DNA from: Bacillota bacterium
GTDB taxonomy: Bacteria > Bacillota > UBA4882 > UBA8346
DNA length: 40,083 nt
Assembly (NCBI GenBank): GCA_012735315.1
Contig: JAAYHS010000077.1
Coordinates: 1 to 40,083, forward strand
Direction: 5' to 3'
The position numbers and the translations under genes were made by a program. The notes below the pieces were generated by a model. It saw nothing but the letters and a program-made list of their open reading frames with translations. It ran no database searches and was not told the DNA's origin. Below, one piece after another: positions 11,249-14,133 of the stretch (its first letter is position 1; each line of letters begins with the position of its first letter).

Positions 11249-11374
11249 ATGGATCGTCAACTAGCCTTGGAAATTATTGAGTCCCCTCGGAACATACACG
11301 TGACCTACCAAAACATTCCAATTTGAATTGACGAAATCGGAGATGATTCGTCTCCCCAATCTAAATTGAAATGA
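11249..11374 (+). pseudogene. sspH: H-type small acid-soluble spore protein gene with in-frame stops
   Basis: ATG at 11249 has a perfect AAGGAG 7 nt upstream. It reads MDRQLALEIIESPRNIHVTY, QNIPI, then TGA (11324-11326), then IDEIGDDSSPQSKLK and a second TGA (11372-11374). The first part matches the SspH pattern (RA..I..SP..I.VTY...P.WI), in which the residue after P-x is a conserved Trp. A TGG-to-TGA change would produce this stop. SspH proteins bind and protect spore DNA. TGAGAT and CATAATTTA upstream (about 11151-11179) loosely resemble a forespore sigma-G promoter. TGA is an ordinary stop elsewhere in this window, so recoding is unlikely. The gene is probably dead, or makes a 25-residue product. 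Confidence 0.65.
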
Positions 11375-11404: not shown

Positions 11405-11433
11405 TTGCCTAAATCAAGCTCCCATGTTATATT
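11405..11433 (+). promoter_or_regulatory. Sigma-A-type promoter of the OPT transporter operon
   Basis: TTGCCT (11405-11410), a 17-nt spacer, then TATATT (11428-11433). Transcription would start near 11440, giving a leader of about 190 nt before the transporter start codon, with the structured element at 11442-11566. Confidence 0.65.
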
Positions 11434-11441
11434 ATTTCCAT

Positions 11442-11566
11442 GGCGGCATCCTCGGAGCCGCACTAGCGCGCGATTATTATTATATTACCGGTATGTCCGC
11501 TTGGATCGTTAGACTGAGACGGAAGATAACGAATTTTCGCCTTCCTGTCTGCAGGGAGGCTTTTTT
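11442..11566 (+). promoter_or_regulatory. Candidate riboswitch/attenuator leader before the OPT transporter
   Basis: The leader can form competing structures. (a) Terminator: GCCTTCCTG (11539-11547) with CAGGGAGGC (11552-11560), 9 bp including one G-U, then six T (11561-11566). (b) Antiterminator: AGACGGAAG (11517-11525) pairs with CTTCCTGTCT (11541-11550) with one bulge, which takes up the 5' arm of the terminator. (c) TCGTTA (11506-11511) pairs with TAACGA (11527-11532), enclosing and possibly sequestering AGACGGAAG. (d) Upstream, the hairpin GCGGC/GCCGC (11443-11447/11457-11461) has a loop whose ATCC and CGGA can pair with TCCG...GGAT (11496-11506), a possible long-range helix or pseudoknot. 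I do not recognise a known riboswitch class. No T-box GGNACCGCG motif is present. Confidence 0.6.
11539..11566 (+). terminator. Intrinsic terminator inside the OPT leader
   Basis: A 9-bp stem with TCTG loop followed by TTTTTT, lying 62 nt before the transporter start codon and 106 nt after the predicted promoter. Its position between promoter and gene implies conditional termination. Confidence 0.75.
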
Positions 11567-11627
11567 GTCTTGGTCTCCCGGTTAAAATCCATTCGGATCA
11601 ATAAGCTATTAAACAGGAGGTTATAGC

Positions 11628-13283
11628 ATGTCGGATCAATCCAGTCAGGAACGCAAACTATTCGGGGTCGAACAATTATCCTTACGCAGCCTTATCTTAG
11701 GTACGCTCGGCTCAATAATCATCACCGCCAGTTCGATGTATGTGGCGCTTCGTTTGAGCGCTCTCCCCTGGCCGACTATTTTCGTAGCCGTGCTTTCGAT
11801 GGCGCTTTTAAAAATACTCGGTAAAACAACCCTGAACGAAATCAATGTTACCCAAACGGGGATGTCGGCCGGGGCAATGGTCGCCGGCGGTTTGGCTTTT
11901 ACCCTTCCCGGCTTGTGGATTAACGGCATCTGGGAAGGCCAGGCGTTTACCCAAGCCCGCCTTTGGCAAGTAATCTGCATTGCTCTGGCCGGGGTAATCC
12001 TCGGGAGCATCCTCACCTGGTTTTTGCGACGCAGATTTGTTGATCAGGAAGCATTACCGTTTCCCGTCGGCAAAGCGGCCGCCGACACAATCATCGTCGG
12101 TGACGCCGGCGGAAAAAAATCGGCCCTGCTCTTCGGTTCAATGACTCTCTCCGCGCTTTTCACTTTTTTGCGGGATAATTTCGGTTGGATTCCGGCGTTC
12201 ATCAGTTCCCAACGGCTTAATGCCAGGAACCTGCAGCTCGGATTTTGGATGTCGCCGATGGCCGTCGGTATCGGATATATCATCGGGACCCTTTATACCG
12301 GCGTCTGGTTCTTGGGAGCAGTGCTTTCCTATTTAGTAATCATCCCTTTGGGAACAGCCTTTAAACTTTTCTCCTCGGTCCAAGCCGCGGTCGATTTCAA
12401 GAATACTCTCGGTATCGGCCTAATGGTCGGGACCGGCATCGGTATTTTGCTGGGATACCTTCTTTCCTTACTTAAAAAGAAAAAAAGCGCTCCCGTCGCA
12501 ACTGGATCGCTGCAAAACGACACCGAAGTCAATAAAGGAACGACGGGGGTTTGGACGCTGCTTGGGGTGGCAGTTGCCTTTGTGCTCTCGGTAGTCTGCG
12601 GAATCGGTCCGATTCCGTCGCTCTTGCTGATGTTGGGGGTATTGTTCGCCTCGGCGATGGCCGCGATCATCAGCGGCGAGACCGGAATCAATCCGATGGA
12701 GGTCTTCGGCATCATCGTCTTACTCGCCGTCCGCTTAATCGTCCCGGTAGACGCCGCTACTTCCTTTTTCATCGCCGCCGCCGTCGCCGTCTCCTGCGGC
12801 TATTCAGGCGATCTGCTCTTTGACTATAAGGCCGGACGGATTTTAGGAACGAACCCGGTAGCCCAGCTGATCTCCCAAGTTGTCGGCGGTTTAGCCGGGG
12901 CCGTAGTCGCCGCTCCGGTAATGTTCGCGGTGGTAAGGCAGTTCGGCGGAGTCGGACCGGGCACGGAACTGCCGGCGGGTCAAGCCTTTTTGGTCAGCCA
13001 AATGATTAGCGGAGTTGGGGAACCCGTAGTCTTCGGAATCGCCGCGGTTGCCGGAGCCTTATTGTATCTTCTCAAAGTTCCGGTAATGACTCTGGGAATC
13101 GGAATTTATCTTCCGTTTGGGATATCGGCCCCCATGTTCCTAGGCGGCGCTCTTAGGTTTATCACCGACCGGCTGCGCCCGAAAGCGGCGGAAACCGGGA
13201 ATATCGCCGCTTCCGGATTATTCGGCGGCGAAGGAATTACCGGGGTTGGAATCGCGATTGTCAAAATGATCACCGGAGGTTGA
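11628..13283 (+). CDS. OPT family transporter
   Basis: This 551-residue polytopic membrane protein has about 14 hydrophobic segments. The N-terminal region contains the OPT/YSL signature NEINVTQTGMSAGAMVAGGLAFTLPG, and the C-terminal part has the repeated glycine-rich membrane segments typical of the family (LPFGISAPMFLGGALRFITDR). OPT proteins are secondary transporters for oligopeptides, glutathione or metal chelates. ATG at 11628 has AGGAGG upstream. It is followed after 4 nt by the pantothenate kinase gene, so the two form one operon, probably controlled by the attenuator-like leader. This pairing hints at uptake of a substrate linked to coenzyme A metabolism; that is inference only. Confidence 0.88.
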   Translation: MSDQSSQERKLFGVEQLSLRSLILGTLGSIIITASSMYVALRLSALPWPTIFVAVLSMALLKILGKTTLNEINVTQTGMSAGAMVAGGLAFTLPGLWINGIWEGQAFTQARLWQVICIALAGVILGSILTWFLRRRFVDQEALPFPVGKAAADTIIVGDAGGKKSALLFGSMTLSALFTFLRDNFGWIPAFISSQRLNARNLQLGFWMSPMAVGIGYIIGTLYTGVWFLGAVLSYLVIIPLGTAFKLFSSVQAAVDFKNTLGIGLMVGTGIGILLGYLLSLLKKKKSAPVATGSLQNDTEVNKGTTGVWTLLGVAVAFVLSVVCGIGPIPSLLLMLGVLFASAMAAIISGETGINPMEVFGIIVLLAVRLIVPVDAATSFFIAAAVAVSCGYSGDLLFDYKAGRILGTNPVAQLISQVVGGLAGAVVAAPVMFAVVRQFGGVGPGTELPAGQAFLVSQMISGVGEPVVFGIAAVAGALLYLLKVPVMTLGIGIYLPFGISAPMFLGGALRFITDRLRPKAAETGNIAASGLFGGEGITGVGIAIVKMITGG

Positions 13284-13287
13284 GCGA

Positions 13288-14133
13288 ATGGGTAAAATTA
13301 TCGGAATCGACATCGGAGGCAGCATCACAAAAATTATTGGTTTCGACAATTCGCAGCTCTTCAGCCCGCTGCTGGTCCGGGCCACCGATCCGATTGCCTC
13401 GGTTTACGGGGCCTTCGGTAAATTCTTAAGCGTCAATGGATTAAGTTTGTCCGACATCGAACGGATCATGGTCACCGGAGTCGGTTCTTCGTATATCACA
13501 GCCAAGCTCTACGGAATCCCCACCGGGAAGGTTGATGAATTTCGGGCCATTGGAACCGGCGGGCTTTTCCTAAGCGGCTTGACCAATGCGGTTATCGTTA
13601 GCATGGGTACCGGAACGGCCTTTGTCAAGTCCGACCAAAACGGAGTGCGTCATATCGGGGGCACCGGGGTCGGAGGCGGCACGCTGCTCGGGCTTTCCAA
13701 CCGGATGCTCAACGTTCGGGATTTCAATGATCTAATCGAAACCGCCCAAGGCGGCAGTCTGGCTCAGATCGACTTGGCGATCAGCGATATTAGCCACGAC
13801 CCCGTGGCGAGCCTGCCGCCGGAAACCACCGCCTCCAACTTTGGGAAAATAAGCGATCTGGCGACCAAGGCCGATGTGGCCTTGGGTATCATCAATCTGG
13901 TTTTTCAGACTATCGGGATGCTTGCGGTCTTCGCCGCCAAAATCGATCAGACCCGGGATATAGTGCTTACCGGAAACCTTACCAATGTGCCGCAGTCGGG
14001 AGAAATCTTCACTCAGCTCAGCCGGTTGTATAACGTAAATTTCGTGACTCCGCCCAACGCTGAATTTGCGACCGCTTCCGGAGCGGCGATCTCGTTTACC
14101 CAAAAAATGCCTTTTACCGAGCTTCCGGTTTAA
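13288..14133 (+). CDS. coaW: Type II pantothenate kinase
   Basis: 281 residues of the ASKHA kinase fold. Visible motifs are the phosphate-1 motif IIGIDIGGSITKI (residues 4-16), the region TGVGSSYITAKLYGIP...VDEFRAIGTGG, SMGTGTAFVK and the glycine-rich GGTGVGGGTLLGLS. Together these define the staphylococcal CoaW/eukaryote-like type II enzymes. They phosphorylate pantothenate (or pantetheine) with ATP, the first step of coenzyme A synthesis. The length is normal. The GGAGG ribosome binding site lies within the end of the OPT gene. The 3' end overlaps the convergent DUF3298 gene by 4 nt. Confidence 0.88.
   Translation: MGKIIGIDIGGSITKIIGFDNSQLFSPLLVRATDPIASVYGAFGKFLSVNGLSLSDIERIMVTGVGSSYITAKLYGIPTGKVDEFRAIGTGGLFLSGLTNAVIVSMGTGTAFVKSDQNGVRHIGGTGVGGGTLLGLSNRMLNVRDFNDLIETAQGGSLAQIDLAISDISHDPVASLPPETTASNFGKISDLATKADVALGIINLVFQTIGMLAVFAAKIDQTRDIVLTGNLTNVPQSGEIFTQLSRLYNVNFVTPPNAEFATASGAAISFTQKMPFTELPV

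What the first reader, a model, noticed from the sequence alone, without database searches (positions are those of the whole stretch)
11405..11627. Unrecognised riboswitch-like attenuator before an OPT transporter-pantothenate kinase operon
A good promoter (TTGCCT-17-TATATT) is followed by about 100 nt of structured leader, then an intrinsic terminator, then the transporter. AGACGGAAG (11517-11525) can pair with CTTCCTGTCT (11541-11550), removing the terminator's 5' arm, while TCGTTA/TAACGA (11506-11511/11527-11532) encloses the antiterminator strand. Further upstream, ATCC and CGGA can pair with TCCG and GGAT across 40 nt, and a GCGGC/GCCGC hairpin competes or forms a pseudoknot. This is the classic logic of metabolite-controlled termination, but I recognise no known aptamer. 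The ligand could be linked to the operon's function (peptide, pantothenate-related or CoA-related); that part is a guess.
Basis: partly seen in the sequence, partly recalled or inferred. Interest (0 to 1): 0.78.

Follow-up and report, generated by a model that had tools for sequence, protein, structure and literature searches.

The report
pan RNA switch before pantetheine-salvage operon
The leader is a copy of a known but uncharacterised RNA switch ("pan"), here placed as an on/off terminator before a transporter and a kinase that probably import and activate pantetheine, a coenzyme A precursor whose bacterial importers are largely unknown.

Summary
In detail: promoter, structured leader, antiterminator and terminator lie at the stated coordinates. 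But the element is not unrecognised. Window 11440-11526 is a full-length match to Rfam RF01749, the orphan "pan" motif (47.9 bits, cut-off 36.2). The same genome has a second pan RNA before panB-panC. Both pan hairpins covary across 48 homologues. P2's 3' strand doubles as the antiterminator strand, and that pairing is specific to each leader across 117 pan leaders. So a formed P2 should mean termination: an OFF switch.

The regulated genes are the newer part. The 2010 description names only pantothenate-synthesis operons. Among 149 Bacillota loci I also find pan before PanF, PanS-like, ECF S (often with CoaX), Opp-type ABC and OPT-CoaW genes. OPT (56% identity or more) and CoaW nearly always occur together. 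In one genus, seven of eight genomes keep OPT and CoaW but lack PanB, PanC, CoaB and CoaX, the published signature of pantetheine dependence. Yeast Opt1, an OPT protein, imports pantetheine disulfides, and type II kinases phosphorylate pantetheine. I predict a pantetheine-salvage operon. Two pan-bearing genomes lack PanB and PanC, so the effector is probably pantothenate or a later CoA-pathway compound. Effector and substrate are inferred, not shown.

The parts
11405..11433 (+). sigma-70-type promoter, TTGCCT-17-TATATT, TG before the -10
   Evidence: same spacing in homologous leaders
11440..11526 (+). pan RNA (RF01749), full length
   Evidence: cmscan 47.9 bits over gathering score 36.2
11442..11463 (+). 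pan hairpin P1 with bulged A at 11448 and 11462
   Evidence: covariation
11496..11523 (+). pan hairpin P2 with bulged A at 11505 and 11519
   Evidence: covariation
11517..11550 (+). antiterminator: 11517-11525 pairs with 11541-11550; excludes both P2 and the terminator
11539..11566 (+). intrinsic terminator (stem 11539-11560, then T run)
11615..11620 (+). Shine-Dalgarno AGGAGG of the OPT gene
   Evidence: sequence
11628..13283 (+). OPT-family transporter, 551 aa; predicted importer of pantetheine (disulfide) or pantothenate
   Evidence: PF03169 184 bits; TIGR00733 139 bits, below its cut-off of 182.5
13288..14133 (+). CoaW, type II pantothenate kinase, 281 aa
   Evidence: NF009842 271 bits over cut-off 234; relatives of solved type II pantothenate kinases

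Best explanation
The leader is a member of the pan RNA class (RF01749) working as a transcription attenuator. When CoA-precursor supply is adequate, an effector stabilises the tandem bulged-A hairpins P1 and P2. P2 then holds the strand 11517-11525, the terminator 11539-11560 forms, and transcription stops before OPT-coaW. When the effector is scarce, 11517-11525 pairs with 11541-11550 instead, the terminator cannot form, and the operon is read. The OPT protein imports pantetheine, probably as a disulfide, and CoaW phosphorylates it to 4'-phosphopantetheine for CoaD. Shown here: class membership, covariation of P1/P2 and of the antiterminator, terminator, operon conservation. Inferred: that the effector favours P2 (OFF), the effector itself (pantothenate or a later CoA-pathway compound, with CoA or 4'-phosphopantetheine favoured), and the transporter's substrate.
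For: RF01749 match. Covariation of P1/P2. Strong terminator after 117 of 149 pan RNAs against 22 in reversed sequence. Leader-specific antiterminator pairing and ordered folding. Sibling pan RNA before panB-panC in the same genome. pan upstream of OPT in seven genomes. CoaW in 15 of 16 OPT-positive and 0 of 13 OPT-negative genomes of the class, adjacent wherever one contig covers both. pan also precedes PanF, PanS-like, and ECF S with CoaX. G001 and G003: pan and OPT-CoaW but no PanB or PanC. Genus g8: OPT and CoaW in all eight; no PanB or PanC; no CoaB or CoaX in seven; CoaD in seven of eight. Literature: yeast Opt1 imports pantetheine disulfides, and type I/II but not type III kinases phosphorylate pantetheine (PMC12406275, PMC11487621).
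Against: No experiment shows ligand binding or termination for any pan RNA in the papers I could search; Weinberg 2010 thought the tandem form suggested a protein partner. Genus g8, G011 and L034 have OPT-CoaW without a detectable pan RNA, so the tie is not universal. In g8, the genus that best supports pantetheine, pan is absent. The window's own genome has PanB, PanC, CoaBC and CoaX, so it does not depend on salvage. G020, G021 and G023 lack CoaB but keep CoaX and have no CoaW, which my scheme does not explain. All genomes used are draft assemblies. The OPT protein scores below the TIGR00733 cut-off and is a distant relative of yeast Opt1.
Confidence: 0.6

Rival explanations
1. Same pan attenuator, but OPT imports pantothenate itself (or a pantothenate-containing peptide) and CoaW phosphorylates pantothenate as usual.
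For: G001 and G003 lack PanB and PanC but keep CoaBC, so imported pantothenate would suffice there. pan RNA controls the known pantothenate importer PanF elsewhere.
Against: Seven g8 genomes have no CoaB, so pantothenate alone should not reach CoA there. The genomes outside g8 already have CoaX, so a second, pantetheine-competent kinase beside OPT needs another reason.
Confidence: 0.25
2. pan RNA is not a metabolite riboswitch but the binding site of a dimeric regulatory protein that senses CoA-precursor status; the attenuation logic is the same.
For: Weinberg 2010 suggested it from the tandem simple stems (PMC2864571). About 27 of 149 copies seem to lack P1, as if each hairpin were a separate binding unit.
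Against: No candidate protein was found or sought here. Tandem bulged stem-loops also occur in a true riboswitch, the nadA (NAD+) motif (abstract of PMC7297122).
Confidence: 0.35
3. The OPT protein is an ordinary peptide or metal-chelate transporter that merely shares an operon with CoaW.
For: Best-known OPT proteins carry peptides or metal-nicotianamine (general knowledge). OPT homologues of about 53% identity or less lack CoaW and pan.
Against: Near-perfect OPT/CoaW co-occurrence in the class, pan upstream in seven genomes, linkage to the panB-panC-panD-coaB-coaC-coaX cluster in G011, and a 50%-identical OPT directly after panB in G105 (L083).
Confidence: 0.1

Closest known systems
pan RNA motif, RF01749 (Weinberg 2010, PMC2864571)
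   Same: Full-length match over the gathering score; tandem hairpins with bulged A; leader of CoA-pathway genes
   Different: Published contexts are panB, panC and aspartate decarboxylase operons; here a transporter and a kinase
NAD+ (nadA motif) riboswitch, PMC7297122
   Same: Two similar tandem bulged stem-loops in a cofactor-gene leader
   Different: Different sequence and family; only an analogy of layout
Yeast Opt1 pantetheine uptake (PMC12406275)
   Same: OPT-superfamily transporter bringing in a CoA precursor that bypasses the pantothenate route
   Different: Eukaryotic and distant in sequence; needs glutathione mixed disulfides; no kinase partner in an operon
B. subtilis cysteinopantetheine salvage by TcyJKLMN and CoaA (PMC11487621)
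   Same: Import of a pantetheine disulfide plus a kinase able to phosphorylate pantetheine
   Different: A cystine ABC transporter and a type I kinase, not a dedicated OPT-CoaW operon under a pan RNA

Membership tests
pan RNA (RF01749) | Covariance-model score at or above the gathering score | tested here: met
   47.9 vs 36.2 bits, model 1-92
pan RNA (RF01749) | Two tandem hairpins, each with conserved bulged A residues | tested here: met
   A at 11448/11462 (P1) and 11505/11519 (P2); alignment and pair counts
pan RNA (RF01749) | Leader of pantothenate-pathway genes | tested here: met
   CoaW in the operon; sibling copy before panB-panC
Riboswitch | Direct metabolite binding that changes expression | not testable with these tools
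   Needs probing and in-vitro termination; only the anatomy was tested
OPT transporter family (PF03169) | Profile match over the curated cut-off | tested here: met
   184 vs 25.8 bits; the narrower TIGR00733 is not met (139 vs 182.5)
Type II pantothenate kinase (CoaW) | Equivalog profile over the cut-off | tested here: met
   NF009842 271 vs 234 bits
Pantetheine-salvage module | Genomes that keep kinase and CoaD but lack CoaB (pantetheine dependence) carry it | tested here: inconclusive
   True for seven g8 genomes (CoaD missed in G028), but G020, G021 and G023 lack CoaB without OPT-CoaW
Pantetheine-salvage module | Uptake and phosphorylation of pantetheine by the two proteins | not testable with these tools
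   Needs transport and kinase assays

The most novel reading that the evidence does not exclude
OPT-CoaW is a dedicated bacterial pantetheine (disulfide) importer plus kinase, and pan RNA is a metabolite-binding OFF switch for a compound at or below pantothenate in the CoA pathway that governs synthesis, import and phosphorylation of CoA precursors together.
Probability: 0.35. Interest if true: 0.75.

Novelty: new member of a known kind. Interest (0 to 1): 0.5.

Why it matters
Two open questions become testable. First, what pan RNA senses: its presence in genomes without PanB and PanC argues against synthesis intermediates and points to pantothenate or a later compound such as CoA. Second, how bacteria take up pantetheine: a 2019 survey found known B5 transporters in only 12% of about 90 pantetheine-dependent gut genomes (PMC6593275), and a 2025 review calls the route unknown apart from cysteinopantetheine in B. 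subtilis (PMC12570885). OPT-CoaW is a concrete, co-regulated candidate.

Tried and rejected
Rejected: a new RNA class (Rfam match). The TCGTTA/TAACGA stem (TAACGA absent in L031). The CGGA/TCCG and ATCC/GGAT long-range pairs (they compete with conserved hairpins, and CGGA is not conserved). A simple rule 'OPT present means no pantothenate synthesis': 6 of 16 OPT-positive genomes have PanB. No solved structure resembles the OPT protein by sequence. No paper found links pan RNA to transporters, or OPT to bacterial pantetheine uptake. A tree of OPT proteins puts the CoaW-linked ones in one group of 19 (support 90/89) that also holds two CoaW-less rows, so it adds little beyond identity. Structure prediction was not used because it would not decide the substrate.

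Full report
What is there. The window carries a promoter (11405-11433), a structured leader, an intrinsic terminator (11539-11560), an OPT-family transporter (11628-13283; PF03169 184 bits) and a type II pantothenate kinase, CoaW (13288-14133; NF009842 271 bits over a cut-off of 234).

It is a known RNA class. Rfam's models find one element in the whole window: RF01749, the pan motif, at 11440-11526, full length, 47.9 bits against a gathering score of 36.2. The motif was described in 2010 as stems with two bulged A residues, mostly in tandem, upstream of panB, panC or aspartate decarboxylase operons, and possibly protein-binding (PMC2864571). I found no ligand assignment in the paper library; two transcriptome papers list it before panB operons. 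The library lacks most subscription journals, so a ligand may have been reported elsewhere. The window's genome holds a second pan RNA (59.1 bits) before panB-panC.

Structure. I collected pan RNAs from relatives and from a sample of 398 genomes of the phylum. In 48 of them, P1 (11442-11463) and P2 (11496-11523) are paired in 94% of cells, 16 of 19 pairs have changes on both sides, and none of 500 shuffles reaches this.

Switch. Of 149 pan loci, 117 have a strong terminator within 150 nt, against 22 in the same bases read backwards. In those 117, the P2 3' strand pairs with its own terminator's 5' arm at -10.9 kcal/mol on average, against -9.3 +/- 0.19 when partners are dealt anew (0 of 2000). 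Relatedness can inflate this test. Still, leaders with an unusual P2 strand show matching changes in the terminator arm, for example L218 (-10.0 vs -5.7 with other arms) and L063 (-12.5 vs -6.1). Some leaders do not fit (for example L003 and L018). Folding the growing window transcript gives P1 and P2 first, then the antiterminator at 11550, then the terminator at 11561. P2 and the antiterminator use the same bases, so a formed P2 means a free terminator: an OFF switch. That the effector stabilises P2 is inference.

What it controls. By the tblastn labels the 149 pan loci fall into 119 synthesis operons, 14 with an ECF S component (several with BirA or BioY and with the type III kinase CoaX), 6 PanS-like plus panC, 5 OPT, 2 PanF, 2 Opp-type ABC and 1 unclear. 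Profile searches of examples confirm PanF (647 bits, over its cut-off), CoaX, a PF12822 ECF S component and SBP_bac_5; the PanS model matches at 300 bits, below its cut-off of 400. So pan RNA covers synthesis, import and phosphorylation of CoA precursors, wider than the published description.

The OPT-CoaW module. OPT homologues of 56% identity or more have CoaW beside them wherever the contig reaches far enough, with G007 the one exception; the homologues of about 53% or less that I examined do not. In the window's class CoaW is in 15 of 16 OPT-positive and 0 of 13 OPT-negative genomes. pan lies upstream of OPT in seven genomes: the window's, G001, G003, G004, G009, and those of L032 and L036. 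In L032 and L036 it is about 250-450 nt from OPT and P2 overlaps the Shine-Dalgarno of a short leader peptide. In G011 the OPT-CoaW pair sits beside panB-panC-panD-coaB-coaC-coaX without a detectable pan RNA. In G105 a 50%-identical OPT follows panB directly (L083).

Substrate and effector. G001 (99% complete) and G003 (91%) have pan and OPT-CoaW but no PanB or PanC, so the effector there is unlikely to be a synthesis intermediate unless it is imported. In genus g8 all eight genomes keep OPT and CoaW. None has PanB or PanC. Seven lack CoaB by two profiles, although the eighth, G018, shows it strongly. The same seven lack CoaX. CoaD over the cut-off is present in seven of the eight, the miss being the 88%-complete G028. 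Kinase plus CoaD without CoaBC is the published pattern of pantetheine dependence (PMC6593275). Type II kinases phosphorylate pantetheine while type III cannot (PMC12406275, PMC11487621), which fits the pairing of OPT with CoaW and of ECF S components with CoaX. Yeast Opt1, an OPT protein, imports pantetheine as glutathione disulfides (PMC12406275).

Weak points. Three OPT-negative genomes of family f2 (G020, G021, G023) lack CoaB but keep CoaX; I cannot explain them, and they leave room for an unrecognised CoaB in that family. All genomes used are draft assemblies. g8, G011 and L034 have the module without a detectable pan RNA. Nothing here measures binding, termination, transport or kinase activity.

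Verdict. The RNA is an ordinary member of a known orphan class, well conserved and with convincing attenuator anatomy. The operon behind it is the interesting part: a testable candidate for bacterial pantetheine uptake, and a constraint on what pan RNA senses.

Noticed in passing
window 11249-11374 (+): An SspH-type small acid-soluble spore protein frame (PF08141, 31 bits with X at the stop) has an in-frame TGA at 11324-11326, just upstream of the pan promoter. It may be a pseudogene or a sequencing error.
   Followed up: partly
L215 201-286 (G025:C29) and L216 4185-4269 (G023:C38): pan variants with a different P2 sequence (TTCGGAACC...GGTCCGAAA) sit before Opp-type ABC transporter operons in two genomes lacking PanB and PanC; possibly a variant with another specificity.
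   Followed up: partly
L032 163-310, L036 1155-1300: In these OPT leaders the P2 3' strand carries GGAGG before a short peptide frame (MSMCSISNQF, MKNIKFISS), which suggests translational control instead of, or besides, termination.
   Followed up: no
L220 6001-6096 (-), G030:C110: A pan RNA with a strong terminator but no recognisable CoA-pathway gene within 6 kb downstream on its strand.
   Followed up: no
genomes G020, G021, G023: These lack PanB, PanC and CoaB yet keep CoaX and have no CoaW; how they make CoA is unclear.
   Followed up: no
about 27 of 149 pan loci, e.g. L025, L213, L219: Copies without a recognisable P1 box, apparently with P2 alone, which suggests that one hairpin can suffice (pattern search only).
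   Followed up: no
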